DNA of 41,353 nt from a virus: the IMG/VR virus record IMGVR_UViG_3300029953_000070, positions 1 to 41,353 of that record; one strand, given 5' to 3'. Shown piece after piece: positions 1-41,353 of the stretch. Below the pieces are notes generated by a model. It did not search any database. It saw only the letters and a program-made list of their open reading frames with translations, and was not told where the DNA came from. Position numbers and translations under genes: made by a program. The stretch's first letter is position 1; the number at the start of each line of letters is the position of its first letter.

Positions 1-127
1 CGGGTGGACCGGGTGGTGGCGCACAATGCGGAGTTTGACTTCACCGTGCTCGAATCAAAAGGCGTGAGCATTCCGATGGGCAAACGGTACTGCACCATGG
101 CCCAGGCCCGCCGGCACGGCCTGCCTG
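1..127. repeat. Assembly overlap: circular junction copy 1
   Basis: These 127 bases recur exactly at 41227-41353, the end of the window. The repeat lies inside the DNA polymerase reading frame and keeps it open, so the two ends join into one circle of 41226 bp. An overlap of exactly 127 nt matches a k-mer size commonly used by short-read assemblers. I read it as an assembly overlap of a circular or circularly permuted molecule, not as a biological terminal repeat. Confidence 0.93.
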
Positions 128-882
128 GAGCGCTCCATACCCTGTGCGAGATATTCAAGATCCCCGAGGACCAGGCGAAAGCGAAAGAGGGCCGCGCGCT
201 GGTGAGGCTCTTTTGCAAGCCGCAAAAGGACGGCACCTGGGCGGATGAGCGCACTCACCCGGCCGAGTGGGCCCGCTACCGGGAGTATTGCCGCCTCGAT
301 GTGATCGCGATGCGCGAGCTGCATAAGCGCATGCCCACGTGGAATGACGCGGTGGAGCGTGATATCTGGGAGCTCGATGCCGATATCAACGCGCGGGGCT
401 TTTGCGTCGATATGCTGCTGGCCCGCGAAGCGGTGCGTGCGCTCGAGGTGGAGGGCAAGTCCAACAATGCCGGGGTGGAATTCTTGACCGATGGCGCGGC
501 CGACAAGGGCACCCAGGCCCAGCGCATCTTGAAATACATCCTGGCGGAATTCGATGTAGAGCTCCCTGACATGCAAGCCGCCACCCTCGAGCGCCGGTTG
601 AACGATCCGGCATTGCCGGATGGCGTGCGGGAACTGATCGCGCTGCGCCTGCAATCGGCTAAATCGTCTGTGTCCAAATATGCAACGCTCTTGGGGTGTA
701 CCAATGAACACGATTCGCGACTCCGTGGAACGCTCTCTTATTGTGGAGCCGGGCGAACCGGCCGATGGGCCGGAAATCGATTTCAGCCGCACAATCTCCC
801 TCGAGCCACCCTTCAACGGTCAGAGATTGACGCCGGAATTGACGCCCTCCGGCTTGCCGCCCTTGATCTTATCGCTGGATGA
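1..882 (+). CDS. Family A DNA polymerase, N-terminal part (3'-5' exonuclease and thumb), continued from 41044
   Basis: This is the second piece of a polypeptide that starts at the TTG at 41044 and crosses the circle join; the joined product is about 354 residues. It holds the proofreading exonuclease motifs. Exo II is AHNAEFDF (about residues 68-75 of the joined protein) and Exo III is YCRLD (about 157-161); Exo I lies before the join. Near the C-terminus is the GRTGRWAG...FQPHNLPR segment, which precedes motif A in phage Pol I-type enzymes. The frame then meets an in-frame TGA at 880-882. The next codons continue the polymerase in the same frame after a strong Shine-Dalgarno site and GTG at 895. 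The exonuclease is therefore separated from the catalytic palm and fingers. The two parts may associate, or readthrough may give some full-length enzyme. A sequencing error or a recent C-to-T nonsense mutation (CGA to TGA) cannot be excluded. Confidence 0.9.
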   Translation, partial: RVDRVVAHNAEFDFTVLESKGVSIPMGKRYCTMAQARRHGLPGALHTLCEIFKIPEDQAKAKEGRALVRLFCKPQKDGTWADERTHPAEWARYREYCRLDVIAMRELHKRMPTWNDAVERDIWELDADINARGFCVDMLLAREAVRALEVEGKSNNAGVEFLTDGAADKGTQAQRILKYILAEFDVELPDMQAATLERRLNDPALPDGVRELIALRLQSAKSSVSKYATLLGCTNEHDSRLRGTLSYCGAGRTGRWAGNRFQPHNLPRATLQRSEIDAGIDALRLAALDLIAG

Positions 883-897
883 GGAGGAATCAGCGTG
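880..897 (+). promoter_or_regulatory. Stop codon merged with Shine-Dalgarno site inside the polymerase gene
   Basis: The sequence TGAGGAGGAATCAGCGTG contains, in order, the in-frame stop TGA (880-882), an AGGAGGA Shine-Dalgarno element sharing its first A with the stop, a 6-nt spacer, and the GTG start of the second half (895). Stop and restart are in the same frame, so a ribosome that terminates here is well placed to restart. This is what decides the start of the downstream polymerase piece. Confidence 0.8.
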
Positions 898-1896
898 CCC
901 ACCGTCACCGAGTATTGCTCGAACGCCCTGCGCGGAGTCGTCGTTGCGCCCCGAGGACGTAAGTTGCTCGTTGGAGACCTCGCTAACATCGAAGGGCGCG
1001 GTGTCGCTTGGCTTGCGGGTGAAAGCTGGAAACTTCGAGCATTCGCTGACGCTGACGCTGGACGGGGGCCGGATCTATACCGACTTGCATACGCCTTGGC
1101 CTTCAACGTATCGCCTGAATCGATAGATCCGCACACCGTCGAGGGTTATTTCAAACGCCAGATCGGCAAGGTAATCGAGCTGATGTTCTCCTACGGTGGC
1201 GGGGTGGGGGCCTGCTTGACCGGCGCCGACACCTACCGGATCGACCTTGAGGTCATGGCCGCGGCGTGCTGGCCCCAATTCCCCCGGGATATCCAGATCG
1301 AGGCGCAGCAAGCGTGGGTGTGGGCGGTGGAGCAACGGCGCACGTTCGACTTGCCGCCGGCCATCTACCGGGCCTGCGACGGGCTCAAGAGGGTTTGGCG
1401 ATGGACGAATCCTAAGATTACGGACTTCTGGCCTGCGATGAAAAATCAGGTGTGGGCCGCCCTCATGCAAGGGGGTACGCGGGAACTGGGATTTTTGACA
1501 TTCGACACAGAGGCAGCGTGGTTGCGTCTGCGCTTACCCTCCGGCCGATATCTTTGCTACCCCTCGCCGAAGCTCCGGGACGGACAATTGACGTTCCTGG
1601 GGACGAATCCGTACACCAAGCAATGGGGAAGGCTCAAGACCTGGGGTGGCACACTCACCGAGAACGCCACCCAGGCCCTGTCGCGCGACGTTCTTGCCGT
1701 GGGGTTGTTGCGCGCGGAGGTGTTGGGATTGAATCCGGTGTTGCACGTGCACGATGAGATTGTGTGCGAGGTGCCGGACACCTCCGATTACAGCGCGGCG
1801 GAGCTCGAACACTGTCTCACGGCCCCGATCCCGTGGGCGCCAGGGCTGCCGTTGGCGGCCAAGGTGTTCGAGACTGACCGGTACCGGAAAGACTGA
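895..1896 (+). CDS. Family A DNA polymerase, C-terminal catalytic part (palm and fingers)
   Basis: The 333-residue product carries all three polymerase motifs of family A enzymes. Motif A is DLANIEGR (residues 28-35). Motif B is the fingers helix RQIGKVIELMFSYGG, with R88, K92, Y100 and G101 in the expected Rx3Kx7YG spacing. Motif C is HVHDEIVCEVP with catalytic HDE at 286-288. It would copy the phage genome, and the exonuclease needed for proofreading is on the upstream polypeptide (1-882). The start is the GTG at 895 after an AGGAGGA site. The alignment is colinear with single-chain phage polymerases, with no insertion, intron or intein at the break. The stop TGA overlaps the ATG of the next gene by one base, so expression is probably coupled. 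Confidence 0.93.
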   Translation: MPTVTEYCSNALRGVVVAPRGRKLLVGDLANIEGRGVAWLAGESWKLRAFADADAGRGPDLYRLAYALAFNVSPESIDPHTVEGYFKRQIGKVIELMFSYGGGVGACLTGADTYRIDLEVMAAACWPQFPRDIQIEAQQAWVWAVEQRRTFDLPPAIYRACDGLKRVWRWTNPKITDFWPAMKNQVWAALMQGGTRELGFLTFDTEAAWLRLRLPSGRYLCYPSPKLRDGQLTFLGTNPYTKQWGRLKTWGGTLTENATQALSRDVLAVGLLRAEVLGLNPVLHVHDEIVCEVPDTSDYSAAELEHCLTAPIPWAPGLPLAAKVFETDRYRKD

Positions 1897-2174
1897 TGGC
1901 CGAAACAGATCTGGAATCCTGGGCCCGCGAGGAAATCTTGAAGGCCGGCGGGCTCATGCTCAAAACCGAATCCCCGGGCACGCGCGGCTTTCCGGATAAT
2001 GCCGTGTTCTGGTCGGAGGGGGTCGTGCACTTTTTGGAATTCAAATACGGTACCGGCCCCACGGCAAAGCTGCAAACGGACATGCACCGGCGCCTGCGCG
2101 CGAAGGGCGCCTACGTGGGGGTTCCGCGCGATCGTGCCTGGATCATGCTCTACTGCCGCGAATATGGCCATTGA
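1896..2174 (+). CDS. VRR-NUC domain nuclease
   Basis: This 92-residue protein is a stand-alone VRR-NUC domain, a PD-(D/E)XK-type nuclease found beside helicases in many phages. The recognisable core is GFPDNAVFW, where the D is the first metal ligand, followed by HFLEFKYG, which supplies the E-x-K pair, and the trailing TAKLQTDMHRRL helix. The size is normal for the phage version. It begins at an ATG that overlaps the polymerase stop codon (TGATG), and its end overlaps the helicase start. The three genes thus form a coupled replication and repair group. A role in processing branched or recombination intermediates is inferred from the family. Confidence 0.88.
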   Translation: MAETDLESWAREEILKAGGLMLKTESPGTRGFPDNAVFWSEGVVHFLEFKYGTGPTAKLQTDMHRRLRAKGAYVGVPRDRAWIMLYCREYGH

Positions 2175-3543
2175 CTTTCAGCCGCGCCCGTACCAGAAGA
2201 TCGCGCAAGAATTTTTGCTGAATCACGAACGGTGCAACCTGTTTGCCGATATGGGACTAGGGAAAACCGCCACCGTGCTTTCGGTCATTCAGACGTTGGA
2301 ACTTGAGCGCACGCTGATCGTGGCCCCCTTGCGCGTGGCCCAAGGGGTGTGGCCGCGGGAGATTGCCAAATGGCGGCAGTTCGAGCGCATGCCGATCGGG
2401 TGGATCGGCGGCACATTCCATGAGCGGCAACTCGCGTTGCTGGCGCTGCCCACCACCGCCACGGTGCATTATGACGTGTTGCTGAAACTCATGGACGAAT
2501 TGGGGGGCGCCTGGCCGTTCAAAACGGTGGTGTGCGATGAGTCCACCCGCTTGAAGGGTTTTCGGATTCGCAAGTCAACCAAACGCCCCCGGATGCTCGC
2601 AACCTACGCGCACAAAAAAGTGAGCCGGTGGATTAATCTGACCGGCACGCCGAACGCCAACGGCCTGACCGATCTGTGGGGCCAGCAATGGTTTATCGAT
2701 GGGGGCAAGGCCTTGGGCCGCTCCTACACGGACTACACCAATCGATGGTTCTACTTGAACGCCAAGGCTAAAAATGCCAAGTATCAGGCCTTGATCCCCT
2801 TTCCGAGCGCCCAGGCCCAGATCGAAGCGGCCATGAAACCCACCACCCTGTCGATCCGGGCACGCGATTGGTTCGACATTGCCGAGCCTATCGAGGTGGA
2901 CGTATGGGTGGATCTGCCGGCGAAGGTCCGGGCCAAGTACAACGAAATGCAGCGCCACTTCTACGTCGAATTTGAACGTGGGGTGGTGACGGCCGCCAAT
3001 TGTGCCGTGAAGGTATCCAAGCTCCTACAGATCGCGTCCGGGGCCGTCTACCCGCGGGACGGCGACACGGTGTGGACGCACGATGAAAAACTCTTAGGGT
3101 TGGAATCGATTGTGGAGGAAACCGGCGGGGCGCCGCTCCTGGTGGTCTATCAATTCGTCTCCGAGCTCGAGCGGCTGTTGAAATGGTTCCCCGGCGCGGT
3201 CGACATTCGCGAGACCGGGGCGCAAGATCGATGGAACGCGCGGGAAATCCCCATGCTCCTGTGTCATCCTAAGAGCGCAGGGCATGGGTTGAATTTACAG
3301 GATGGGGGGCATCACATTGTCTTTTTCACACCCACCTGGGACTTGGAGCTCTACGCTCAGGTGCTTGAGCGCATCGGCCCCGTGCGCCAGGCCCAATCCG
3401 GCTACACCCGCGAAGTGTTCGTATATCACATTCTGGCGCGAGACACGGTGGACCCGGTGGTTAAGGTGCGTCGGGAGAACAAAGGCTCCCTGATGGACCT
3501 GTTCATGGACCGCCTGCGCAGCGATGGGCATCCCGTCGCTTGA
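2164..3543 (+). CDS. SNF2-like superfamily 2 DNA helicase
   Basis: The 459-residue protein has the two RecA-like lobes of phage SNF2/DEAD-type helicases. Motif I (Walker A) is DMGLGKTA at about residues 29-36, preceded by the Q-type RPYQ element. Motif II is CDEST in place of DEAH, and the LTGTPNANGLTDLW segment is motif III. The C-terminal lobe contains LCHPKSAGHGLNLQ (motif V) and QVLERIGPVRQ (motif VI). I chose the ATG at 2164, which overlaps the end of the VRR-NUC gene by 11 nt, because homologous helicases begin just before the PRPYQ element and the frame upstream is occupied. It probably remodels replication or recombination forks. Position and motifs resemble other phage helicase/VRR-NUC pairs. 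Confidence 0.92.
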   Translation: MAIDFQPRPYQKIAQEFLLNHERCNLFADMGLGKTATVLSVIQTLELERTLIVAPLRVAQGVWPREIAKWRQFERMPIGWIGGTFHERQLALLALPTTATVHYDVLLKLMDELGGAWPFKTVVCDESTRLKGFRIRKSTKRPRMLATYAHKKVSRWINLTGTPNANGLTDLWGQQWFIDGGKALGRSYTDYTNRWFYLNAKAKNAKYQALIPFPSAQAQIEAAMKPTTLSIRARDWFDIAEPIEVDVWVDLPAKVRAKYNEMQRHFYVEFERGVVTAANCAVKVSKLLQIASGAVYPRDGDTVWTHDEKLLGLESIVEETGGAPLLVVYQFVSELERLLKWFPGAVDIRETGAQDRWNAREIPMLLCHPKSAGHGLNLQDGGHHIVFFTPTWDLELYAQVLERIGPVRQAQSGYTREVFVYHILARDTVDPVVKVRRENKGSLMDLFMDRLRSDGHPVA

Positions 3544-5341: not shown

Positions 5342-5866
5342 TCAGGGCACTGGGACGATGATACCTGGTTGATTGGTCACGGGAAATCCAGCCACCGTGA
5401 TTGTAATCTGTTCCAAGTTCGGGGTGCGGGTGCCCGCCGGCACGGACTGGGAAATCACGTACCCCGGTATTACCGTGGCCGACAGCACGAACACGGGCGG
5501 CGCGATCCAGAATCCGGCGTCCAGAATGTTCAATTGGGCATCGTAATAGTATTCCCCCACCACATTCGGCACGGTGTAGATGCGCCCGGGAGCGGGTGGC
5601 CCGCCCGAGACTTTCAGCGGGATGTACTGCCCGGCGTAGGCCGAGGAGAGGAACGGCACGTAGCCCGTGATGACGTAGCCCACGGGCACCAGGGGGTCAT
5701 TCACATACGTGATGGCCCCCACGTTGACATGGGAGGCCGCCAAGTCCGCAGTCGCTACCGCCAAGGTCGTTGGCTCGTACCCATCCCACGTAAACCCGGT
5801 AAAGCCATCCATGCTCCAGGCGTAGTTGCCGGAGGCATCCCAAATATTCGTGCCCGGGCCGGTCAA
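5342..5866 (-). CDS. PASTA-domain-like virion protein
   Basis: The 174-residue protein has an N-terminal Trp/Gly-rich segment (WDASGNYAW, FTGFTWDGYEP) followed by a region resembling PASTA domains. It contains the VPNVVGEYYYDAQLNILDAG block at about residues 98-117, then a PPVFVLS linker and VIPGYVISQSVPAGT. The spacing VPNVVG...A...L...G...SQ.P.AG matches the PASTA consensus. PASTA domains bind peptidoglycan or act as spacers, and in phages they occur on fibre-associated and lysis-zone proteins. Cell-wall contact during adsorption is plausible but inferred. Its start overlaps the tail-spike stop by 4 nt. Confidence 0.75.
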   Translation of the reverse strand: MTGPGTNIWDASGNYAWSMDGFTGFTWDGYEPTTLAVATADLAASHVNVGAITYVNDPLVPVGYVITGYVPFLSSAYAGQYIPLKVSGGPPAPGRIYTVPNVVGEYYYDAQLNILDAGFWIAPPVFVLSATVIPGYVISQSVPAGTRTPNLEQITITVAGFPVTNQPGIIVPVP

Positions 5867-8355
5867 TTGGGGATCGCGATCGGGGTGTTGATCTGCCGAA
5901 AATGCGTGCCATCCCAGAAAAAATCATAGCTCGCCCCGGTGCCGGAGGAGAGTGCCGAAATGGTGCCGGTCTTAAAGATCGCATTGAAGGCGGGCGTGAC
6001 CGACGTACCGGAGGCTTGCACCGTAATCAGCAATCGGCTGTTGGAATCGCTTGCGTTGACGGGCACCCCGAAAGTAATCGCCCCCGTGGCTACAACCACG
6101 AATTGCTCACCCTGCGACAGATCGAGTACGGGGGCCGTCGTGTAGGGTACCACCACCGGGGAGCCGGTGGAACTAAACCCCCACACCGGGAAATTCTCGG
6201 TGTCAAAGCCTGCGGAGAGAAGCGCTGATATCAGCGCCGTTTTGCGCTTGCCCGCAAAGCTCCACTCGAGGCTGTCGCCCACCTGTTTGGCACCGTGGGC
6301 GTAGCCCGCGACCATCGAATACGTTGCGCCGGTCTGAAATTCTGCCGTGCGGTTGTAGGGCACCGAGACGATGCTCCCGCCATCGCTCCCGTATGTAATC
6401 AAGTAGGGCTCGCCGGTTTGCTCGTTGACCAGGTAGTAGCCGGTGTAATCGACATTCGCAGCGAGGCTTGTGGTGAAATAGGTACCCGCCGAGGCACCGC
6501 TCCCGGCCGAGGACAGATACGCCGCGCTCCCCGAAATCGTGATGCCGGTAAACAGCACCGCGAACAGGGTCATCTGCTGATCGAGAATGATCTGATCGGC
6601 GCGGAAGTTGGGTGTGTAGTGCCCACCGCAATACTCAATGCTGTAGTCGCCGGAGTTCGGCAACGCGCCGGTGCCTATCACCACCAATTGCGACGCACCG
6701 CTTGCGGCGATAGTCTGCAATATCTGGCGCCGGAAGGCCGGCTGCGTGCCGTTCGGATTATAGACAAGATAGCAATTGTTGTAGTAGCCGTTGGCGGCAA
6801 ACGTGTTGTTGGTCTGGACTAGCGTGTTAAAGCTGCCGCTTGCGGCGGTGGTCGTGACGTTGACCGCCAGCAATGCGCGAATGCCGGGGATCTTGCTTTG
6901 TACCGCGGCGAGCGTCGAGGAGTTGACCGAAATGCTGGTGCGCCCGAAGTAGGAACTGCCGAGGTCGATCGGCGGGATCTTAGGCCCATAGGAGGCCGCC
7001 CCTGCGCCGGGCGATGAGGCGGAATTAATCTGCCCCCAGCCGCGACCGTCGAAAATAAATGCCGCGGCGGTTGACCCGCCCACCCAGTAGGTCTGCCCGC
7101 CGAGTTTCAAGCTGCCTTTGCAATACACCGAGTATTGCGCGTTGTAGACTCCGGTGATGGTCCAATTGTTGATGAACAAAAAACCCCAGGCGAGCGTCGC
7201 GGGGTTGCCGTCGATATAGATCGCCGGATTGACTTGTCCCGCGTTAAACCCTTGATCGATCTTGCCCGTGTCCCAATGGATCGGCGCGCACCCCGGGCCA
7301 ATGTACATGCATCCGTAGATGCACTGTTCAATGTGCAACCCGCGGAAATAAATGTTGTTGGTCGAGTTGCCGCTGATCGCAGATCGTAGGATGACGGCCG
7401 CTCCGGCGGAAGGCGCCGCATTGCCCCCGGAGTTGTAGATATCGATGTTGGTGTAGTTCGAGTCGTAGCAGGTGTCGACCACTAGCGCAGGACAAGCGTT
7501 GGTCTGGAACAGAAGGTCATCGAGGCGCCAGAGCTGCGATTCCACGTTCATGTGGAGCATGCCTAAATTCGCGGCCTTGCCGTTGGTAAAGCCCAGCCGC
7601 TTGATCTGCCCCAGGTTCTGATTGCCGCCCGGAGTGGAGGAGGCGCCCACCTCGAACACATAATCCGTGAAGGAGAGGGGTTCGATGGTTGTCCACTGCC
7701 GATCCGCACCCTCAATCGTGAGGACACCTTGAGTCTGCACTTTCGTGAAGAAAAGGTAGGCGCCACTGGTCGGTGCCGGGGAGGTGGGGACGAAATGGTA
7801 GCCCCGCACTTTTCCCATGGTGTTCCATGCGGGTGCGTCGTTGGTCGAGCCATTGCTAACCGCCCCGTAGCGAAACGGGCCGTTGGCGTAAGCGTAGTTA
7901 GCCGGGGTGACGCTGGCCGCGAGTTCAATGGCCGTCTGCGGGTTTAAGGATTGCGCGACGGCATTGGGTGAAATTTGCTGGCGCCAACTGGTGCCGTCAT
8001 ACATGAGATTGGTGGGTATGCCGGATTGCAACTCACCACCCACCAATGCGGTGTTCAAAAAGCTTACTATGGCGCGCACCCCGGTGCCGCCGAAATTCAA
8101 GGTGGCGGGGCCGGTGTTGAGCACCGCCGGAATCACCCGCACGGTCATGCCGGCGGCAAGCGCGATGGGGGCGGCGGGCTGGGGCGCAAAGGCGGCGACC
8201 ACCATGGCATTCACGCTGCCGGTGTCGGTGCCTAAATAGACAGCGCTTGAGTACAGATCGGTGCAATTGCTGTTGACCTTCTGCCCCGGCACCTGGCCCC
8301 GATCGCCGGTCCCGTCGCCCGCGACGGTGCCCACATTGATGAGTTGCTGAGTCAT
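5863..8355 (-). CDS. Tail spike / tail fibre protein, beta-helix type
   Basis: This is an 830-residue receptor-binding protein. It begins MTQQLINVGTVAGDGTGDRG and continues with QKVNSNCTDLY, the widespread phage fibre N-terminal module (NVGT...GDGTGD...KVN.N...LY) thought to attach to the tail. The middle is rich in Gly, Asn, Ser and Thr with repeated short hydrophobic strands (about residues 200-520), as in right-handed beta-helix spikes. The C-terminus ends YDFFWDGTHFRQINTPIA, a common fibre end. An upstream extension to 8532 is open, but the ATG at 8353-8355 overlaps the lysozyme stop (ATGA) and fits the fibre module, so I use it. The receptor and any enzymatic activity cannot be read from the sequence. 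Confidence 0.85.
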   Translation of the reverse strand: MTQQLINVGTVAGDGTGDRGQVPGQKVNSNCTDLYSSAVYLGTDTGSVNAMVVAAFAPQPAAPIALAAGMTVRVIPAVLNTGPATLNFGGTGVRAIVSFLNTALVGGELQSGIPTNLMYDGTSWRQQISPNAVAQSLNPQTAIELAASVTPANYAYANGPFRYGAVSNGSTNDAPAWNTMGKVRGYHFVPTSPAPTSGAYLFFTKVQTQGVLTIEGADRQWTTIEPLSFTDYVFEVGASSTPGGNQNLGQIKRLGFTNGKAANLGMLHMNVESQLWRLDDLLFQTNACPALVVDTCYDSNYTNIDIYNSGGNAAPSAGAAVILRSAISGNSTNNIYFRGLHIEQCIYGCMYIGPGCAPIHWDTGKIDQGFNAGQVNPAIYIDGNPATLAWGFLFINNWTITGVYNAQYSVYCKGSLKLGGQTYWVGGSTAAAFIFDGRGWGQINSASSPGAGAASYGPKIPPIDLGSSYFGRTSISVNSSTLAAVQSKIPGIRALLAVNVTTTAASGSFNTLVQTNNTFAANGYYNNCYLVYNPNGTQPAFRRQILQTIAASGASQLVVIGTGALPNSGDYSIEYCGGHYTPNFRADQIILDQQMTLFAVLFTGITISGSAAYLSSAGSGASAGTYFTTSLAANVDYTGYYLVNEQTGEPYLITYGSDGGSIVSVPYNRTAEFQTGATYSMVAGYAHGAKQVGDSLEWSFAGKRKTALISALLSAGFDTENFPVWGFSSTGSPVVVPYTTAPVLDLSQGEQFVVVATGAITFGVPVNASDSNSRLLITVQASGTSVTPAFNAIFKTGTISALSSGTGASYDFFWDGTHFRQINTPIAIPN

Positions 8356-8696
8356 GTAATCGCCAAGGCCTCCGCCACCGTAGTGTCCGCCGTGCACCCG
8401 AGCGCCTGGCACACGTGCGCTAGATACCTCCCCGAGTCGTTCTCGGTGGGTGGGGCAAATTCGTAAATGGCCTCTTGCAAAGTCAAGCCCCGTTCGGCGT
8501 AGAGTTCGAGCTGCCGGTCCAGGTCCGCCCACCCATCCGCGGGGGTGTCAATCTCACCGATGGCGTCAGGGTCGCCCGGATGCTCAGAGTGGGGACTGTG
8601 CCGAAGATCCCCCGGGTTGTTGTTCCGAGTCGGCAGGGCGTTAGGAATTCCATACCCCTCCTCGTGACCAATGGCGAGCGCCAGCTTAGTCGACAC
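8352..8696 (-). CDS. Lysozyme-like / lytic transglycosylase-type muralytic enzyme
   Basis: The 114-residue protein carries the GHEEGYG segment near the N-terminus (catalytic Glu candidate at residue 12 or 13) followed by the RNNNPGDLRH block (about 24-33). This pairing is typical of small phage muramidase or transglycosylase-like domains. A WADLDRQLELYAERGLTLQ helix and an APPTENDSGRYLAHVCQALG region complete the fold. It probably cleaves peptidoglycan, either as the endolysin or as a virion-associated enzyme. No signal peptide is seen, so release would need a holin. It overlaps the S74 fibre gene upstream and the spike gene downstream, so it is embedded in the tail-fibre region, with the membrane proteins 3 kb further down. 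Confidence 0.75.
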   Translation of the reverse strand: MSTKLALAIGHEEGYGIPNALPTRNNNPGDLRHSPHSEHPGDPDAIGEIDTPADGWADLDRQLELYAERGLTLQEAIYEFAPPTENDSGRYLAHVCQALGCTADTTVAEALAIT

Positions 8697-11600
8697 GGCG
8701 CCGCCGGATCACAAAGGCCACGGTGAGCCCCGCGCACCAGACGGCCAAGGCGTAGATTTCCCATTGCTGACGATCGAGCGTGCGAGCTTGCGTGCTCACT
8801 TGGAATTGCTTATCCGCGAGTTGCTGTTCCACCCGCCAATGGGTGTCGTTGCCGCGGTTGTGTTCCTCCTGCAGAGCTTTAACGAGCAAGGCCGTCATTT
8901 GCTCATAACGCACGCCGTGCGCCTGCCCATCGGGTTCCACGGTAGCTAGCCGAGGTTCTACCATGCGCACTTCCTCCGATATAAATCCTATCTGCTGCGA
9001 AGTGAAATTCGCATCCGCGGCGTCCCGCGGGCTCCCGTCGTTGTTGTAGAAAAACTGCCGGGGGGTGAGCTTGAGCAAGGTGGCCAGGCCCGCATCCAAA
9101 GGCTCGATCGCATGCTTGAACCGGGAGGCTGACACCAGGCATGTATTGGTGGGATCGTAGGTCAAGAGGCCGGCCGTGGACGAATAGCACAGATACCCGG
9201 TTTGCGCGCCGGTGTTGGATGCGATGTTGGGAAATTTCAAAGTGACGCTGGAAATGAGCGTGCTGCCACCGCTGCCGTTGCCGATGGTGTTGGTGCCGGT
9301 GTTGGTGCCCGTGCCCATCGAGGAGGTGGTGGTGCCTGAATTGTTCAAAATCACGTTGCCGCCAGTGACCGTGACCCCGGCCGAATAGGTGCTCAGGGCT
9401 CCGGCGTTCACGGCCCCGTTGGCCTTGATCGAGCCACTGGTGAACACTCCCCATACATTGGTGGAGGTGACGTTACCCCAGGTCGCGGTGCCCGCCACGG
9501 TCTGCGCTCCGGTGGTGGTGTTGGCATAGGATATCGTGCTGGTGCTCGAGCCGGTGATGGTGTAAGTGCCGTTGTAGCCTGTCGGCGTGACTCCAGCGAT
9601 CGTGACCGATTCACCCACCACCGGCGCCACCGGTTGCGTGGCGACGGTAATGGTGGCCGTGGCGCCCGTGCCTGCCGCGGCCGTGGTCGCTATGTTCGTC
9701 CCGGTGGCCGTCACCGGAGCGGGGACGTATAACGCCGCGAGATTCGTATAGGTCGCGGGGTTCAAGGCGTCGAAGGCATAGGTAGGCAGGGCGGCGGCGG
9801 CTTGCGTGGCCACCGTCCCTCCGCCGGTGGTGGAGCTCGTGTCTTGAAGCAATTGCGTGCCGCCGGTGCCCAAGGTGATGCCGCCCGTACCCCAGGAGGG
9901 CGCCGCTTGATTGCCCGCGTTGAGGATGATCGGCGCCGTGGCGCAGGCCATTTGCGCTTGATACATCGCGGGGGTGTTAGAGTCGTTCGAGGAGTTGGAC
10001 GCATAGACAAACGGCGGGGCACCGCAATGGTAGAGCGATCCCGCGTTGTTGATTGACGTCGTTAGCACGTTGAACTTCAAATCGATGGGGGGCTGCACCG
10101 AGCATCCGCCCACGGTGAGTGTGACTCCCGCGGTCGTTGTGGGGTAATTGCCGGTGGCGGCCGCCACCGCCGTTTGCACCACCCCGCCGGCCGTGGTGAC
10201 CGTGACGCTGCCCCCGCCGCTCGATAGCGAGTAGGTGCCCGCCGTGCACCCGACGCCACCCACCGCGGTGAGAATCGCCGCGGTAAGTCCCATGCTCGTC
10301 ACGCTCGCTGTCGCGGTGGATCCTGTGACGTTGGCAAAGGCGTTAGGCGGCGGATCGATCGTAATGGTGGGAAAGGCACCGGGCGAATAGGCCCCGCCGG
10401 TGTAACCGCCATAGGGGACAATCGTCAGGGATTGAAGGGATCCGGTGATGCCGTTCAATGATCCTTGGTTTAGATTCACCGAGTTTGCATACTCGTTGCC
10501 TTGGAAATCGACTTGATAGCCTTTGCTTTTCACGAAGGCGCCGGAGGTGGTGGGACTCCAGATATTGCCCGCCTGGGTCAAGGTGCCCGTGCCGGTGGAC
10601 GCATACGAAATAGTAGTGGCCGTGGCGCCCGTCACGATCGCACCCGAGGCCGGGGTGTCATAGGCCGCCGGTTTCATGTTCTGCACAATGATGGTCGAGC
10701 CCACCGGCGGCACCACCGGGGCGTTGAAGGTGGCGGTGCCGACAGCGCAGTTTGTACCGCAATTGGCCGTGGTCGTGTTGGCGTAGGAAACCGAATTGTA
10801 GGTGCTGGCCGTGATGGTGAAACTACCGTTGTACCCCGCTCCCGTCTGCCCGGCGATGGTCAGCGGACTGCCCACCGCCGGAGGCACCACCTGCGGTGCA
10901 ATCAAGACCGTGGCGGTGGTGCCGTTACCTGAGGGACTGCTCGCCGCCACCGTCGAGGAGAACGTGAGCGTAGCGGTGGTGCCCGTGCCGGTGGCTGCCG
11001 TAGGCACCAGGCCGGGGTAGATCTGCGCTTGATGAAAATCTACCCCCCACCCCACCTCCGGGGCGTAGTTGGAAGCGAAATACCGGTAATTGGCCCCCAG
11101 GTACGTGGAGGAGAACGTAAACGGGGAATCGTGTTCGACTTGGGCAAAGCAAATGCCGCACTGCCAGGCAGAGGCCGGGTAGTTGCCGTTGGCGAACACC
11201 AGGGCCTCATCGCTGATGACGCCTTGCGCAGCATCCGCCGCCCGTGTGGCAATGTTCATCCCGTGCTTTTCATACGAGGTGCTGCCGAACGGCAATTGAA
11301 CGTCAAACTCACTCGTGGTGGTGAGTGTGTAGGCGTGAATCGCCGAGTTGGCGAAAATGTTGGGGTTGAACCCGAAGATATTGCCGTTGCTCAGACTGTG
11401 TTCGCCATAGACACCCAGCATGTCTGAGTTCATATTCACTTTCGTGAGCAACGCATTCACATTTTGCGTGTTGCCACTGACCGGGGGCGCGTTGATCGTG
11501 ATTTCAAATTCGCTGCCGCGCGTGCCGTTCCACCCGGTATTCAGATTTTCATTGGCCGCGAGGAAACCGCAGATATCCCCGCCATTCGGACAATTGATCG

Positions 11601-12498
11601 TGTCCTGGTAATTGGCGTAAATCTGATCCGCGCGCGGAGGGCTGGCGCCGATGCTGGTATAGGTGCCGCTCACGGGAGCGGTCATGTACATCCAGCTATT
11701 GGCCGCCGAGGGCCCTGTGCCTGAAACTACCAGTGCGTTAGGTTGAAACAATGTTGCTTGAATCGAGCCCGCGGTGCCGTTGGTGCCTAAGCTTGCGCCC
11801 GTGCCGATGACGAATTCACCCGTAGCGTTGGTGTTGACGCCAGGAACGAGTGCGTTCCAATTGGTTGAGGCCGTCGAAGCGGCGTTCAACGTTTGGCTGG
11901 GGAACGTGCCCGTAAGCGAGAGATTCGTGCCAAGCGAAACGGACCCCACGGGTGGATTCGTCCCGGTCCCGCTATTGAGGAGCTGCGCCGATGCAGGGAT
12001 GGTCACACCACCGCTACTGCTGATTGTCACGCAGGTTATCTGCTGATTGGTGGTGTTGTACTGCAGCGCGTCGTTGGTCGCGTTGCAATTGGGGATCGTT
12101 TCCCATGCCGCGGTCGCGGATGCGGTGGTCACGAGGATCTGGTTAGCGAGCGTGTTCATCGGCACTGATGTGCCATTGATGGTTGTGATGGTGAAACCAG
12201 GGGGCAATTGCGTGCACCCAACGGGGATCTGCGCGGTGTTATTCAGATTGCACAGCACTTCGTTCGCCCCAATCGGTTGCAAGCCGGTGGTGACGATCGA
12301 GCTCTGCCACGTCGTGCCGTTCCAATACACCGTGCCCATGTCAACGGTCTGCGCGGGCGTGCCGAGTACCAATTCATTGCTGGGCAGATTGATGAAATAG
12401 AAAGTGCCCGGCAGCGGAGTGGGGGTCCACGGATAGGTTTGTGCCCACGCCGTCCCCGTGGCGAGGAGGAGCGCGAGCGCGCGCAGGATCTTAGGCAT
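8686..12498 (-). CDS. Large tail fibre with S74 intramolecular chaperone, signal-like N-terminus and C-terminal membrane segment
   Basis: This is a 1270-residue fibre-type protein. The C-terminal 150 residues match the peptidase S74 intramolecular chaperone. SASRFKHAIEPLDAGLATL is the SxxRxK-type start of the domain with the self-cleavage Ser, followed by LTPRQFFYNNDG, GFISEEVRMVEP and RYEQMTALLVKALQEE. The domain helps the fibre trimerise and is normally cleaved off. The body is Gly/Thr/Asn-rich and holds at least three related beta modules with a GYNG(S/T)(F/Y)TIT...SYANTTT signature. Two features are unusual. The N-terminus (MPKILRALALLLATGTAWAQ) looks like a cleavable signal peptide with an AWA|Q site. 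The last 25 residues contain a hydrophobic segment (YALAVWCAGLTVAFVI) followed by RRRR. The gene overlaps its neighbours at both ends. Confidence 0.87.
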   Translation of the reverse strand: MPKILRALALLLATGTAWAQTYPWTPTPLPGTFYFINLPSNELVLGTPAQTVDMGTVYWNGTTWQSSIVTTGLQPIGANEVLCNLNNTAQIPVGCTQLPPGFTITTINGTSVPMNTLANQILVTTASATAAWETIPNCNATNDALQYNTTNQQITCVTISSSGGVTIPASAQLLNSGTGTNPPVGSVSLGTNLSLTGTFPSQTLNAASTASTNWNALVPGVNTNATGEFVIGTGASLGTNGTAGSIQATLFQPNALVVSGTGPSAANSWMYMTAPVSGTYTSIGASPPRADQIYANYQDTINCPNGGDICGFLAANENLNTGWNGTRGSEFEITINAPPVSGNTQNVNALLTKVNMNSDMLGVYGEHSLSNGNIFGFNPNIFANSAIHAYTLTTTSEFDVQLPFGSTSYEKHGMNIATRAADAAQGVISDEALVFANGNYPASAWQCGICFAQVEHDSPFTFSSTYLGANYRYFASNYAPEVGWGVDFHQAQIYPGLVPTAATGTGTTATLTFSSTVAASSPSGNGTTATVLIAPQVVPPAVGSPLTIAGQTGAGYNGSFTITASTYNSVSYANTTTANCGTNCAVGTATFNAPVVPPVGSTIIVQNMKPAAYDTPASGAIVTGATATTISYASTGTGTLTQAGNIWSPTTSGAFVKSKGYQVDFQGNEYANSVNLNQGSLNGITGSLQSLTIVPYGGYTGGAYSPGAFPTITIDPPPNAFANVTGSTATASVTSMGLTAAILTAVGGVGCTAGTYSLSSGGGSVTVTTAGGVVQTAVAAATGNYPTTTAGVTLTVGGCSVQPPIDLKFNVLTTSINNAGSLYHCGAPPFVYASNSSNDSNTPAMYQAQMACATAPIILNAGNQAAPSWGTGGITLGTGGTQLLQDTSSTTGGGTVATQAAAALPTYAFDALNPATYTNLAALYVPAPVTATGTNIATTAAAGTGATATITVATQPVAPVVGESVTIAGVTPTGYNGTYTITGSSTSTISYANTTTGAQTVAGTATWGNVTSTNVWGVFTSGSIKANGAVNAGALSTYSAGVTVTGGNVILNNSGTTTSSMGTGTNTGTNTIGNGSGGSTLISSVTLKFPNIASNTGAQTGYLCYSSTAGLLTYDPTNTCLVSASRFKHAIEPLDAGLATLLKLTPRQFFYNNDGSPRDAADANFTSQQIGFISEEVRMVEPRLATVEPDGQAHGVRYEQMTALLVKALQEEHNRGNDTHWRVEQQLADKQFQVSTQARTLDRQQWEIYALAVWCAGLTVAFVIRRRRVD

Positions 12499-12802
12499 AT
12501 GCTAGGGTGACATCCGCGGCGCCCACGATAACCACGGTGAGCCCTGTGAACAATTGGACGGGCACACCCAGGAGATTGCCGCCCACGGTGGCACCCCAGA
12601 CACCCACCACCGTGCCCGAGCCGGCGGAGTTGTCATAGATGGTCACCGAGGTGCCCGCGGTGTTGATGTTCACCGCTGCAAGCATGCCGACATTCGCCGG
12701 GGCTCCCGCGGCGCCCTGATTGGCACCGATGCCGGAAAGTAGGGTGGTGGTGCCCGCCCCTGAGAGGTGGGCGTACTTGTAAACGGTGTCCGTTGACATC
12801 AT
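12491..12802 (-). CDS. Hypothetical virion protein, beta-rich
   Basis: The 103-residue protein is rich in Gly, Ala, Thr and Val with alternating strands (VNINTAGTSVTIYDNSAG). This pattern is typical of small beta-sandwich virion proteins such as head or tail decoration proteins. No family could be named. Two adjacent ATGs (12797-12802) overlap the stop of the preceding gene, and its own end overlaps the start of the large fibre by 8 nt. It is therefore probably made at the same time as the fibre. Confidence 0.7.
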   Translation of the reverse strand: MMSTDTVYKYAHLSGAGTTTLLSGIGANQGAAGAPANVGMLAAVNINTAGTSVTIYDNSAGSGTVVGVWGATVGGNLLGVPVQLFTGLTVVIVGAADVTLAYA

Positions 12803-12990
12803 TTCACCGGACTGATCGAGAACAACGGGAGTGCGGGCATTTCACCCGCCGCGGGCCCCGCCGCTACACCGTTCGGCTTGATAACCGGCGTGACTCCCGT
12901 GGGGTCATAGCGCGTGGGCGGATGGGTGTGAACCGGCGGGGAATGCCGGTCGTCGGGGCGCACGGGCCCGGTTACCGAAAATGGGTACAT
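12799..12990 (-). CDS. Small proline- and histidine-rich hypothetical protein
   Basis: The 63-residue product starts MYPFSVTGPVRPDDRH and is rich in Pro and His, suggesting an extended, non-globular chain. I chose the ATG at 12988-12990 because an AGGAG element sits 7 nt before it. A longer open frame upstream lacks one. It is part of the tightly packed virion block, overlapping the next gene by 4 nt. Function is unknown. Confidence 0.62.
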   Translation of the reverse strand: MYPFSVTGPVRPDDRHSPPVHTHPPTRYDPTGVTPVIKPNGVAAGPAAGEMPALPLFSISPVK

Positions 12991-13000
12991 GCCTTGGCTC

Positions 13001-13186
13001 CTACAGGTTATCCGGGTCATAGCCGGCCTCCTTATCCTTTATACCATGCTTGACTTTTTCCCATGCCACAGCGGCATTGATGACCTTGATCTGGACATCC
13101 ACGGGTTCCGCCTCAAGCGTGTCCTTTTTCAGCAATCGGTCGAGTGCAGTGTCGATTTTCTTGTTGGGGCTCAGTTCATCGGTCAT
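13001..13186 (-). CDS. Small charged hypothetical protein
   Basis: The 61-residue helical protein has many Lys, Asp and Glu residues (KKIDTALDRLLKKDTLEAEP) and ends KDKEAGYDPDNL. The ATG at 13184-13186 overlaps the stop of the upstream internal-virion-protein gene by 4 nt, which supports it as a real, coupled gene. I recognise no family. Its position between the ejection proteins and the fibre suggests a minor virion or assembly role, without direct evidence. Confidence 0.65.
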   Translation of the reverse strand: MTDELSPNKKIDTALDRLLKKDTLEAEPVDVQIKVINAAVAWEKVKHGIKDKEAGYDPDNL

Positions 13187-14838
13187 GGTGCAATTCCTAG
13201 TTCATCGGTCTGACTGACGTCGAAGGGGCCGCGGAACCGTTCATCCTGGGTGGACCCTACCCCGAGCGCGGCACCGGCGCCGGGCGCCATGCTCTTATCA
13301 CCCAACAGAAAAGGTTGCAGGATTTTCAAGCCTACGCGGCTGTAGAGCGCCGGAATCACGGCCGCGGCGGCGAGCACACCGGGATGGCCCATGGCCGCTC
13401 CGATCCCGCCGCCACCCAGCATTTCCAGCACCGCCAGGCGCCCCGGAGTGCCCGAATCCGGCACCAGATCGCCGCCTAAGACTGTGGACCCTGCGCGCGC
13501 CAGGGGCTGGCCCAATGCGGTCCCGCGCGAAAATTTGCGTTTGCCCTTGGACTTATCCTGGGAGCGCACGGCACTGGTGTACTGCGCCGGGGAGTGCACA
13601 CCCCCCTGCTTTTCGGCACCCACCCGGGAGGAGGCCACCCGGGCAATCTCGAAGATCGCGTACCCGCGGCGCAGCTTCTCGTATTGCTTGGCGTACTTCG
13701 GGTTCGCGAGCTTAATCATCTTGTCCATGGACTCGCGAACGACGATGAGGGCCGCCGCCACCTTACGATCGGCCGGCGTGGTCGATATTTGATGCGCCTC
13801 GATTTCATTGCGCAGGTTTTCGCGCGCCTCCTGCAAGCCCTTGCCGGTGGCCATGCCTTTCGGGTCAAAATGCCGCAGCACCTCCTGATCGATGACCCGG
13901 GCCACCGTGGCCGCTTGTTCCGCGGGCAGGGAGCGCTGCGCGATCGACTTGACGTTGGACAGGTCAGTGCGCAGCGAGGATGCCTTGGGGTTTAGGCTCT
14001 TGACGTTCAAATTCCCCTGCAGCTTGGGCAGGATCGTGGAGAATTGATTGTCGAATTCCGTCATGCCGTGGTCGATCGCTTCCCGGCCGCGCATGCCTTT
14101 CGGCAGCCGCTGGCCAATCTCTTTAAGCCCGTCGTTGATCGTGGCGTTGGCAAAGTCCGCCACCGACTCCGAGCGCGCGTGTTTGATGACCGTGCCCAAT
14201 ACCGGAATGCCGGTGAGTTTTTGCTCCAGATCGTTGGTGATACCTCCCTTGATCTGCCCCGGCGTCATGGTCACATCATTATCCGCCAAATGGCGCACCT
14301 CCGGGGTGATGGCCTTGGCTGGGAGCCCCGGGGTTTTCGCCGCTTCCTTGCCCAGCTTGCCCCCCAGAATGTTGCCGCCGCCTTCGATGGCCGTCTGTGC
14401 GATCGTGCCCGCGAGTGGGCCAAATGCATCCCCCAGGCCTTCGCCCGCCGCGCCGCCCGCCTTGTGCAACAATTCACCCGGGATCCCGAGCACGCTCATG
14501 GCGTCCTTGCCCCCTTGGGTACGGGGATTATAGGTCATACCGCCTTGGACCTTTTCCACCACATCGGCCGCCGGGGTGTTCGTGATCCCGAGGGCATTGC
14601 CGATGCCGGCGCCGATCCCCGCGAGGCCCGCCACCGGCTGCGCCACGGCCCCTGAGGCCATCGACATCATGGGTTCTACCGCGGCGCCCACCAGATCCTT
14701 CACCCCGGGGGAGTAATACCCCCCTTGACCATTTGATACATTTTTGGATTCATTGGGGGGCGGGGGAGCCGCGGCGGCCGCCTCCGCTTCGGCGCGTGCG
14801 CGAAACTCGAATTCCTCAGTTTCCGTTGGGGTGGTCAC
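13183..14838 (-). CDS. Internal virion (DNA ejection) protein, Gly/Ala-rich N-terminus
   Basis: The 551-residue protein begins with an acidic, Ala/Pro-rich tail (about residues 1-30) and then a Gly/Ala-rich membrane-active-looking region (about 45-160) with several GLAGIGAGIG-type stretches. A helical domain follows, containing DVTMTPGQIKGG (about 190-201), a pattern often seen in podovirus internal virion proteins. Many charged helices follow, and a second Gly/Ala-rich region lies near the C-terminus. Proteins like this leave the capsid with the DNA and help it cross the envelope. The start is a GTG with an AGGAG element 7 nt upstream. It is the third of three consecutive large genes of this kind. 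Confidence 0.75.
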   Translation of the reverse strand: MTTPTETEEFEFRARAEAEAAAAAPPPPNESKNVSNGQGGYYSPGVKDLVGAAVEPMMSMASGAVAQPVAGLAGIGAGIGNALGITNTPAADVVEKVQGGMTYNPRTQGGKDAMSVLGIPGELLHKAGGAAGEGLGDAFGPLAGTIAQTAIEGGGNILGGKLGKEAAKTPGLPAKAITPEVRHLADNDVTMTPGQIKGGITNDLEQKLTGIPVLGTVIKHARSESVADFANATINDGLKEIGQRLPKGMRGREAIDHGMTEFDNQFSTILPKLQGNLNVKSLNPKASSLRTDLSNVKSIAQRSLPAEQAATVARVIDQEVLRHFDPKGMATGKGLQEARENLRNEIEAHQISTTPADRKVAAALIVVRESMDKMIKLANPKYAKQYEKLRRGYAIFEIARVASSRVGAEKQGGVHSPAQYTSAVRSQDKSKGKRKFSRGTALGQPLARAGSTVLGGDLVPDSGTPGRLAVLEMLGGGGIGAAMGHPGVLAAAAVIPALYSRVGLKILQPFLLGDKSMAPGAGAALGVGSTQDERFRGPFDVSQTDELGIAP

Positions 14839-16237
14839 GCTTCCACTCCTGATACCGGCGTTCCTTGTCAGGGTCCGCGAACGGTTTCACGGGCGAGGAG
14901 TTCGGATGCGCCGGTGGGGTCGCCTCGCGCCCGGGCTGGGTGCCGGCGCGGATCGCCTGGCCCAGATCCGCCTGGGTGCCTTCGAGCGCACTGTGCGTGG
15001 CGGCCACCTCCTCGTTGATCGCTTTCTTGATACCGGCCCAATTCTGATTATTGATGGCTGGTGAGAACAACCCATCCGCCCAATCCTGGGTGGTGGCGTG
15101 GAGCTGCGCATTGCTGCCCGGCATGGTGACCGATTCGATGTATTGCCGGCCGGTGGCGCCCATCAAGGTTTTCAGCTCAGACAGATCCTTATCCCCGAGC
15201 TCAGTCTTCACCTTGTTGAAGATCTCGTTCAGGCTCATGTTGCCGTCGCCATTGACCTTGGCCACGAGTTGATCGATGCGGCTTTCCATGGTTTGAACGG
15301 ACTTCGTGAGACGCTCCACGCCCGCCTTGCGCTGTGTCGCCTGCCGCAAAGTTGACCCGTAGGCGTCCGCAAACTTGCGCGCCGCGATCGGATCCCCGGG
15401 GTCCACGCCCTGATCGGCCATCTTGTTCAGAAGCGGAATGATCTGTTTTGCCCCGAACCGGGATTTCAGGTCGTTCACAAACTCCGGATCCCCGCGTTGC
15501 ATGGCCTGAATCGCGAATTCCTGCCCCGCACCGGTCAACTGTTCCGCGCCACCGGACTGCGCAATCTTCTGCATCTGAAAGCGCGCATCGATCTGTCGCC
15601 GTTGACGCTGATCCATGTCGGAAATGCGCGTCAAGCTCGTATCCATCGATTCAATCCGCTTCCAGATGCCGTCGATCGATTTTTGCTCCGCCTCGAACTT
15701 GGTATCGTCCCGGCCGTACTTGGCGGATGCGATCTTGATCTGTGTGAGCATGTCATTGATGGTCAAGCGCTTGTTTTGTAGGATATCGGCAAATTCCTTC
15801 TGCTGCGCCTCACTCTTGGCCTTCGCTTCATCAAACTTGGTCTTATAGTCCTGCCAATCCTTCTCCGCGCGCGCCTGGTCCCCCTCCAGGTGGCCTTTCA
15901 ACGCGCCATTCAGCGAGGCCGTGACCCCCATCCAATTGCCCTTCGAGGCAATGCCGGCAATCAGGGCCATTCCGAGCAAGGCGCCGGAAAACTTCTGGTA
16001 TTCGTTCGGGTCCACCAAGGGTTTGGGCTGGTAGGTGGGTAGATCGGCCTTCGGCGGAGGTTTCACGGCCCCCAACTGGTCGATCTCCTTCGATACCCCG
16101 GCCTCCATCGGCGCGAGCTCGCCCTCGCGCTGCGTCGCGGACTGCTGGCGCGCGGTATCGAGCGCACTTTGCCGGCTGATAGCTTCCTGCCGATCGGCCG
16201 CGATGTCCTTTTGCAGCGCTTGGGGGTCTGCGCTCAT
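14816..16237 (-). CDS. Internal virion protein, long coiled coil
   Basis: The 473-residue protein is largely charged helix. Residues about 1-60 and 120-230 are rich in Gln, Lys, Glu and Asp with heptad-like spacing (AEKDWQDYKTKFDEAKAKSE), interrupted by one hydrophobic stretch (ALLGMALIAGIASKGNWMG, about 86-104). The tail is Pro-rich and ends with a charged segment. The composition and position match ejection proteins of short-tailed phages. It overlaps the downstream ejection-protein gene by 23 nt and the upstream one by 4 nt, so all three are probably made together and packaged together. No enzymatic motif was seen. Confidence 0.75.
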   Translation of the reverse strand: MSADPQALQKDIAADRQEAISRQSALDTARQQSATQREGELAPMEAGVSKEIDQLGAVKPPPKADLPTYQPKPLVDPNEYQKFSGALLGMALIAGIASKGNWMGVTASLNGALKGHLEGDQARAEKDWQDYKTKFDEAKAKSEAQQKEFADILQNKRLTINDMLTQIKIASAKYGRDDTKFEAEQKSIDGIWKRIESMDTSLTRISDMDQRQRRQIDARFQMQKIAQSGGAEQLTGAGQEFAIQAMQRGDPEFVNDLKSRFGAKQIIPLLNKMADQGVDPGDPIAARKFADAYGSTLRQATQRKAGVERLTKSVQTMESRIDQLVAKVNGDGNMSLNEIFNKVKTELGDKDLSELKTLMGATGRQYIESVTMPGSNAQLHATTQDWADGLFSPAINNQNWAGIKKAINEEVAATHSALEGTQADLGQAIRAGTQPGREATPPAHPNSSPVKPFADPDKERRYQEWKRDHPNGN

Positions 16238-17583: not shown

Positions 17584-17585
17584 GG

Positions 17586-40829: not shown

Positions 40830-41047
40830 TGATCGTTTATGTACTGGTTATCTATTGCACGCTGGGGTGTGGAAAGACACCGCTCCCGCCATCGGCGATG
40901 GTGTTCGATTCGCAACCCGCGTGCGACGAATCCTTGGCATACATGGAGGCCCTGCGTCTGGAAACAATCGCGCCGGATAAGAAGTTTAATTTTGAAATGC
41001 GCTGCATACCCGCGGTGGATTTTATTGCCGGCGAGCTGACGCATTGA
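40829..41047 (+). CDS. Small protein with hydrophobic N-terminus
   Basis: This 72-residue product starts MIVYVLVIYCTLGCGKTPLP with a hydrophobic segment ending in a Cys, which could be a short membrane anchor or lipobox-like signal. The rest contains two more Cys residues. The ATG overlaps the SSB stop by 1 nt (TGATG) and its own stop overlaps the TTG start of the DNA polymerase, so it is in the replication unit. No family recognised. Confidence 0.68.
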   Translation: MIVYVLVIYCTLGCGKTPLPPSAMVFDSQPACDESLAYMEALRLETIAPDKKFNFEMRCIPAVDFIAGELTH

Positions 41048-41353
41048 TTCTCTACCTCGATCTGGAAACGCGCAGCGCCACTCTGTCCCTGCCTCAAGTT
41101 GGGGTCTACCGGTACGTGGAGGAGTGCGAGATTACGCTTTGCGGGTGGACCATCGATGACGATGAGGGGGTGGGGGTGAGCTCGTGGGATGACGGCATGG
41201 TGACCACCCTCAATTATTGGATCGATCGGGTGGACCGGGTGGTGGCGCACAATGCGGAGTTTGACTTCACCGTGCTCGAATCAAAAGGCGTGAGCATTCC
41301 GATGGGCAAACGGTACTGCACCATGGCCCAGGCCCGCCGGCACGGCCTGCCTG
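41044..41353 (+). CDS. Family A DNA polymerase, N-terminal part, first piece (continues at 1)
   Basis: The frame begins at TTG 41044-41046, overlapping the previous stop, and runs to the window edge. LYLDLETRS at residues 3-11 is Exo I (D-x-E) of the 3'-5' exonuclease. The last 127 nt duplicate 1-127, and the polypeptide continues from position 1 to the stop at 882. The start codon is the only one upstream of Exo I that keeps the frame. The resulting protein begins immediately before the exonuclease motif, as in related phage polymerases. Confidence 0.88.
   Translation, partial: MILYLDLETRSATLSLPQVGVYRYVEECEITLCGWTIDDDEGVGVSSWDDGMVTTLNYWIDRVDRVVAHNAEFDFTVLESKGVSIPMGKRYCTMAQARRHGLP
41227..41353. 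repeat. Assembly overlap: circular junction copy 2
   Basis: These 127 bases are identical to positions 1-127. They represent the same place on the circle, not a second copy. The polymerase frame continues through the join without interruption. Confidence 0.93.

What the first reader, a model, noticed from the sequence alone, without database searches (positions are those of the whole stretch)
862..900. DNA polymerase split by an in-frame stop that forms part of a new ribosome binding site
The exonuclease/thumb part (ending 882) and the catalytic part (from 895) are in the same frame, with just TGA between them and no insertion. The TGA is the start of TGAGGAGGA, giving a Shine-Dalgarno site 6 nt before a GTG. 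The break is between the GRTGRWAG segment and motif A (DLANIEGR), inside what is normally one palm domain. All active-site residues remain intact on either side. A polymerase made as two chains at this point would be unusual. The alternatives are programmed readthrough giving both forms, or a nonsense mutation or assembly error in which an Arg (CGA) or Gly (GGA) codon became TGA. Both are explicit and testable.
Basis: partly seen in the sequence, partly recalled or inferred. Interest (0 to 1): 0.82.

Follow-up and report, generated by a model that had tools for sequence, protein, structure and literature searches.

The report
Phage DNA polymerase in two chains
This phage makes its copying enzyme from two adjoining genes instead of one, cut at a floppy loop just before the catalytic centre, and related phages have split the same enzyme at the same loop on at least three other occasions, so the split is real and recurrent rather than a mutation or sequencing error.

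Summary
TGA at 880-882 ends the exonuclease/thumb half of a family-A phage DNA polymerase. A strong Shine-Dalgarno site (883-888) and GTG (895) follow in the same frame and start the catalytic half. The window closes into a circle (127-nt end repeat), giving complete chains of 354 and 333 aa. One correction: intact relatives lack about 21 nt here (stop, ribosome site and start together), so TGA is not a mutated sense codon.

The closest relative found (L092; halves 65% and 58% identical) ends and restarts at the same codons, so an assembly error is excluded. Both halves are under purifying selection and keep every catalytic residue. Three other lineages are split in the same loop, with an HNH homing endonuclease, or one or several genes of unknown function, in between. 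A tree rejects a single origin for the window/L092, L278 and L296 splits.

In an AlphaFold model of the read-through chain the break lies in the least ordered internal loop. Best explanation: a natural two-subunit family-A polymerase, made by coupled re-initiation and assembled non-covalently. Assembly is inferred. Readthrough is disfavoured, not excluded. A new variant of a known kind (split gp43 of T4-like phages; split PolA of MEP401).

The parts
41044..41353 (+). 5' end of the first polymerase gene (polN): TTG start overlapping the TGA of the upstream ORF (TTGA), Exo I motif DLE; continues at base 128 because the last 127 bases repeat the first 127
   Evidence: ORF list and end-repeat test
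1..882 (+). polN, rest of the first chain (354 aa in all): 3'-5' exonuclease, thumb, and the first palm strands with TGRWAG; TGA at 880-882
   Evidence: phrog_17 E=3.6e-37 and phrog_403 exonuclease subunit; alignments; 65% identical to L092 polN
880..900 (+). about 21 nt absent from intact relatives: TGA stop, GGAGGA Shine-Dalgarno, 6-nt spacer, GTG start, CCC
   Evidence: protein alignment with 8 intact polymerases; junction comparison; placement uncertain by a few nt
883..888 (+). Shine-Dalgarno site GGAGGA for the second chain
   Evidence: duplex -12.3 kcal/mol, top 0.12% of window 15-mers
895..1896 (+). polC, second chain (333 aa): palm motif A, fingers with motif B, motif C; TGA stop overlaps the next ATG
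   Evidence: phrog_7766 E=7e-55, phrog_17, sub-threshold Pfam DNA_pol_A; 53% identical to BPP-1 Bbp42; catalytic residues invariant
976..978 (+). codon of the motif A catalytic aspartate (D326 of the read-through chain)
   Evidence: invariant column in a 41-sequence alignment
1896..2174 (+). downstream gene of the same operon: nuclease of the kind found next to the polymerase in BPP-1-like phages
   Evidence: phrog_93 endonuclease E=2e-16; synteny with BPP-1 bbp42-bbp43
2164..3543 (+). SNF2-type helicase gene of the same operon
   Evidence: Pfam SNF2-rel_dom 3.6e-14, phrog_62 1.5e-126

Best explanation
The phage encodes a family-A DNA polymerase as two proteins. PolN (354 aa) is the 3'-5' exonuclease, thumb and start of the palm. 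PolC (333 aa) is the rest of the palm with motif A, the fingers and motif C. Ribosomes finish PolN at TGA 880-882 and re-initiate at GTG 895, helped by GGAGGA, which sits inside the stop region; the two chains are thus made next to each other and presumably in similar amounts. The chains are proposed to assemble without a covalent link into a Klenow-like polymerase, because the cut falls in a flexible surface loop between two short helices, between the TGRWAG strands and the motif A strand. The split is old enough to be shared with L092. It probably began when a gene, such as a free-standing homing endonuclease, entered this loop and was later lost, leaving only a stop, ribosome site and start. 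Shown here: two open frames, the same junction in L092, recurrent independent splits at the loop, purifying selection on both halves, intact active-site residues, a loop in the model. Inferred: re-initiation, assembly, activity, and origin by loss of an inserted gene.
For: Same stop codon and same restart codon in L092, 65%/58% identical. The stop region is extra sequence absent from intact relatives. Three further splits in the same loop with inserted genes: L278, NUMOD4/HNH_3 endonuclease; L296, phrog_12600 protein; L018, three small ORFs; the ORFs abut or overlap as ATGA-type junctions. 5 of 262 distinct loci are split there and 246 read straight through. The four split genes of the close group (window, L092, L278, L296) are not one clade, p-AU 7e-36; L278 sits beside intact EcoM-689R2 (L085). 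Both halves are constrained: PolN pN/pS 0.25/0.79; PolC dN/dS 0.16. Motifs kept in both chains. AlphaFold of the read-through chain: pLDDT 92.9, pTM 0.90, and residues 291-300 the least ordered internal block (69) between helices 288-291 and 302-313. Fold match to Klenow-type enzymes, Bst Pol I Z 29.4, Klenow Z 28.6. Strong Shine-Dalgarno. TGA is the ordinary stop in this genome. Precedent for activity of split halves: gp43A/B of Aeromonas phage 25 co-purify with polymerase activity, as reviewed in PMC2988022.
Against: No protein evidence. L092 has no Shine-Dalgarno site before its ATG (-2.5 kcal/mol) and a 78-nt spacer, so the re-initiation step is not conserved in form. Only one close relative was found. 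Loss of an inserted gene in this lineage is not seen directly. The model is of the joined chain, so association of separate chains was not tested.
Confidence: 0.82

Rival explanations
1. Programmed readthrough of TGA (or a short ribosome hop from GGA over TGA to a following GGA) makes some full-length 692-aa polymerase in addition to the two chains.
For: Halves in the same frame in the window and in L092; the codon before TGA is GGA in both and an in-frame GGA follows. Small in-frame gap in the window.
Against: L092 would need to pass two TGA codons and translate an unrelated 25-codon stretch. L278, L296 and L018 have inserted genes in another frame, so the family works without fusion. The TGA is followed by a strong ribosome site and start, which readthrough does not need. 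No Rfam element in the window.
Confidence: 0.07
2. Recent nonsense mutation or dead gene; the phage relies on another polymerase or a host one.
For: Some relatives do carry broken copies (L215 several stops, L336 one stop).
Against: No sense codon corresponds to TGA. Constraint on both halves between the window and L092 at saturated synonymous divergence. All active-site motifs kept.
Confidence: 0.04
3. Assembly or sequencing error created the stop.
For: Metagenome contig; raw reads could not be examined.
Against: A single-base error cannot create a 21-nt segment; an independent contig has the same stop and restart; the genome closes exactly into a circle.
Confidence: 0.01
4. Two halves joined by protein or RNA splicing (split intein or group I intron remnant).
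For: Inteins and HNH insertions occur in related polymerase genes; a split intein in phage MIJ3 PolB is reported in PMC6892783.
Against: Only 12 nt separate stop and start in the window, too little for either; no extra residues at the chain ends; no Rfam intron hit in the window or in the loci searched.
Confidence: 0.01

Closest known systems
DNA polymerase of Methylophilales phages MEP401/MEP402 (Zobellviridae), ORF13 + ORF15
   Same: Family-A phage polymerase in two genes; PolN ends after TGRLSSSSPNLQNF..., PolC starts at motif A (MILNADAKALEW), so the cut is in the same segment (PMC10580990)
   Different: Another polymerase lineage; a small ORF lies between the halves; cut a little nearer motif A; the authors left open that it could be an intron
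Split gp43 (family B) of T4-related Aeromonas phages 25 and 44RR
   Same: Natural two-chain phage replicative polymerase, with a homing endonuclease or an untranslated spacer in the gap; the halves co-purify and are active (PMC2988022)
   Different: Family B, unrelated fold, other cut site, no fused stop/ribosome site
Bordetella phage BPP-1 Bbp42 and relatives (phrog_17)
   Same: Same polymerase family, 47-53% identical per half, same operon order with nuclease and helicase
   Different: One uninterrupted gene of 688 codons
Split family-B polymerase of Methanothermobacter thermautotrophicus
   Same: Natural two-chain polymerase (Kelman et al. 1999, cited in PMC3984812)
   Different: Archaeal family B

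Membership tests
Family-A (Pol I-like) DNA polymerase, BPP-1 Bbp42 / phrog_17 group | Sequence homology over both halves | tested here: met
   phrog_17 over both chains; 45-53% to BPP-1-type phages
Family-A (Pol I-like) DNA polymerase, BPP-1 Bbp42 / phrog_17 group | Motif A Asp, motif B R...K...Y, motif C HDE | tested here: met
   D326, R386, K390, H584-D585-E586 invariant in 41 sequences, all in PolC; Y398 nearly invariant
Family-A (Pol I-like) DNA polymerase, BPP-1 Bbp42 / phrog_17 group | Exo I, II, III motifs of the DnaQ-type proofreading domain | tested here: met
   DLE, N...FD, Y...D all in PolN
Family-A (Pol I-like) DNA polymerase, BPP-1 Bbp42 / phrog_17 group | Klenow-like fold across the junction | tested here: met
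   Read-through model matches Bst Pol I Z 29.4 and Klenow Z 28.6 over residues 1-631
Naturally split (two-chain) DNA polymerase | Two separate open frames with own starts, conserved in more than one genome | tested here: met
   Window and L092 share stop and start codons
Naturally split (two-chain) DNA polymerase | Chains associate and are jointly active | not testable with these tools
   Needs co-expression and assay
Homing-endonuclease-split gene | Endonuclease gene at the break | tested here: not met
   Only 12 nt in the window; met in relative L278
Readthrough gene | Single in-frame leaky stop conserved among relatives | tested here: not met
   L092 has a second in-frame stop; other splits change frame

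The most novel reading that the evidence does not exclude
The loop before motif A is a general breakpoint of family-A phage polymerases: fission there has been fixed repeatedly and kept after the inserted gene was lost, as a stable two-subunit enzyme whose exonuclease/thumb chain may also act alone and whose stop/ribosome-site fusion sets the ratio of the chains.
Probability: 0.25. Interest if true: 0.75.

Novelty: new variant of a known kind. Interest (0 to 1): 0.56.

Why it matters
Pol I-type enzymes are usually taken as one chain, and the palm as one unit. Repeated natural fission inside the palm, at one loop, shows a place where the enzyme tolerates separation and gives ready-made split-polymerase parts for in-vitro reconstitution. 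The set of states (intact, split with endonuclease, split with other genes, split with nothing but a ribosome site) can test whether insertions drive gene fission in phages and whether fission persists after the insertion is gone.

Tried and rejected
Nonsense mutation or assembly error: rejected by the extra 21 nt and by L092. Reassigned TGA: rejected, most large genes of the window, polC included, end in TGA. Group I intron or other known RNA: no Rfam hit in the window or in the loci searched. Single origin of the close-group splits: rejected. Dual coding in frame 2 at 862-882 (run TTGATCTTNTCGNTGGATGA, changes synonymous only in frame 2, ORF 680-1126): sample too small, left unexplained; the second pattern hit L267 is not a polymerase locus. 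More close relatives: viral scans with N-half and C-half alignments and with DNA patterns gave only L092. Survey in 369 genomes of one class gave three hits, all in long frames, so uninformative on splits. The large 62-row tree was only finished in quick mode; a 27-row careful tree was used instead. A first codon comparison of the N half used a wrong frame and was redone. In one search the L018 N half was read from the wrong ORF, so its Exo and TGR entries there are void. In one search the L278 stretch was read in the wrong frame and is not used.

Full report
OBSERVATION. A frame open from base 1 ends in TGA at 880-882; the same frame restarts at GTG 895 and ends at TGA 1894-1896, overlapping the ATG of the next gene. 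GGAGGA at 883-888 stands six bases before GTG; its duplex with the 16S tail (-12.3 kcal/mol) is reached by 0.12% of all 15-mers in the window. The upstream frame is not truncated: the first and last 127 bases of the window are identical, so the contig closes into a 41,226-bp circle and polN starts at TTG 41044. PolN is 354 aa, PolC 333 aa. The record is listed as linear, which should be corrected.

WHAT THE PROTEINS ARE. Both chains match one PHROG family of phage DNA polymerases, phrog_17, in consecutive stretches (730-989 and 995-1231). Nearest named relatives are the single-gene polymerases of Bordetella phage BPP-1 and similar phages, 47-53% identical per half. PolN has Exo I-III and the TGRWAG segment; PolC has motif A, motif B and motif C, and these residues are invariant or nearly so in 41 sequences. 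The operon order polymerase, nuclease, helicase is that of BPP-1.

THE JUNCTION IN RELATIVES. Intact relatives read ...ADLLFDN-VMELTSSALRG...; the window reads ...LDLIAG*GGISVPTVTEYCSNALRG.... The difference is seven codons, TGA GGA GGA ATC AGC GTG CCC, that is the stop, the ribosome site and the start. So no sense codon was turned into TGA. The nearest relative, L092 from another metagenome, ends PolN at the same codon (DLVVG*) and starts PolC at the same codon (ATG-PTVAEY), with 78 nt and a second in-frame TGA between. The halves are 65% and 58% identical to the window's. Synonymous sites are near saturation while amino-acid changes are few (PolN pN 0.25, pS 0.79; PolC dN/dS 0.16), so both chains have been kept under selection since the two phages parted.

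RECURRENT SPLITS. Among 262 distinct loci with this junction, 246 read straight through for at least 200 codons and five are split exactly there: the window, L092, L278, L296 and L018. L278 carries a NUMOD4/HNH_3 homing endonuclease between the halves, L296 a phrog_12600 protein of unknown function, L018 three small ORFs. Stops and starts overlap as ATGA-like junctions. A careful 27-row tree places window and L092 together (100/99), L278 beside intact EcoM-689R2 (100/100), and L296 near BPP-1; holding the four close-group splits as one clade is rejected (p-AU 7e-36). L018 lies in a distant group. With L018 this makes at least four origins. The sample was drawn by similarity to the window, so 5 of 262 is not a population frequency. 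In the literature, MEP401 and MEP402 have a family-A polymerase split in the same segment, in another lineage (PMC10580990; checked here on the record).

STRUCTURE. AlphaFold2 on the read-through chain with 40 intact relatives gave pLDDT 92.9 and pTM 0.90. Residues 291-300, which hold the stop, are the least ordered internal block (69) and lie between helices 288-291 and 302-313. The TGRWAG strands (245-258) are on PolN, the motif A strand (320-327) on PolC. The model matches Bst Pol I and Klenow (Z 29.4 and 28.6). The cut thus lies in a flexible loop inside the palm. Whether separate chains assemble was not tested.

MECHANISM. Best supported: termination at TGA, re-initiation at GTG 895 aided by the fused Shine-Dalgarno, and non-covalent assembly. 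The split-with-gene states suggest how it began: insertion of a gene such as an endonuclease, then its loss. In T4-related phages, split gp43 halves co-purify and are active (PMC2988022). Weak point: L092 lacks a Shine-Dalgarno site, so the restart there must use another route, such as re-initiation without one.

ALTERNATIVES. Readthrough or a short hop is possible in the window alone but does not fit L092 or the frame-changing insertions. Reassigned TGA, intron and intein readings find no support.

VERDICT. Real, selected and recurrent; a new variant of the known kind 'naturally split phage polymerase', notable for the cut inside the family-A palm, for its compact stop/ribosome-site/start, and for repeated independent fission at one loop.

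Noticed in passing
window 1-127 and 41227-41353: Exact 127-nt direct end repeat: the record is a complete circle of 41,226 bp although classed as linear.
   Followed up: yes
window 862-882; L092 1790-1810: Run TTGATCTTNTCGNTGGATGA is nearly identical in the two phages, and its changes are synonymous only in frame 2, which is open in both (window ORF 680-1126). Possible dual coding or a signal; unexplained.
   Followed up: partly
L278:3502-4010: NUMOD4/HNH homing endonuclease gene sits between polymerase halves with overlapping stop and start codons; its nearest intact counterpart (EcoM-689R2, L085) is 87% identical in the C half.
   Followed up: yes
L296:1794-2358: A phrog_12600 protein of unknown function, not a recognised endonuclease, lies between the polymerase halves.
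   Followed up: partly
L092:2873-2875: PolC of L092 ends four residues early (TAA where relatives have Tyr), just before an AAGGAG site for the next ORF.
   Followed up: no
L355:6111-8221 (MEP401): Published split PolA has its second chain starting directly at motif A; the paper leaves open an intron.
   Followed up: partly
window 5863-20427: A block of large minus-strand genes, presumably virion genes; all but one (20431-21306, weak head/connector hits just beyond it) have no PHROG match.
   Followed up: no
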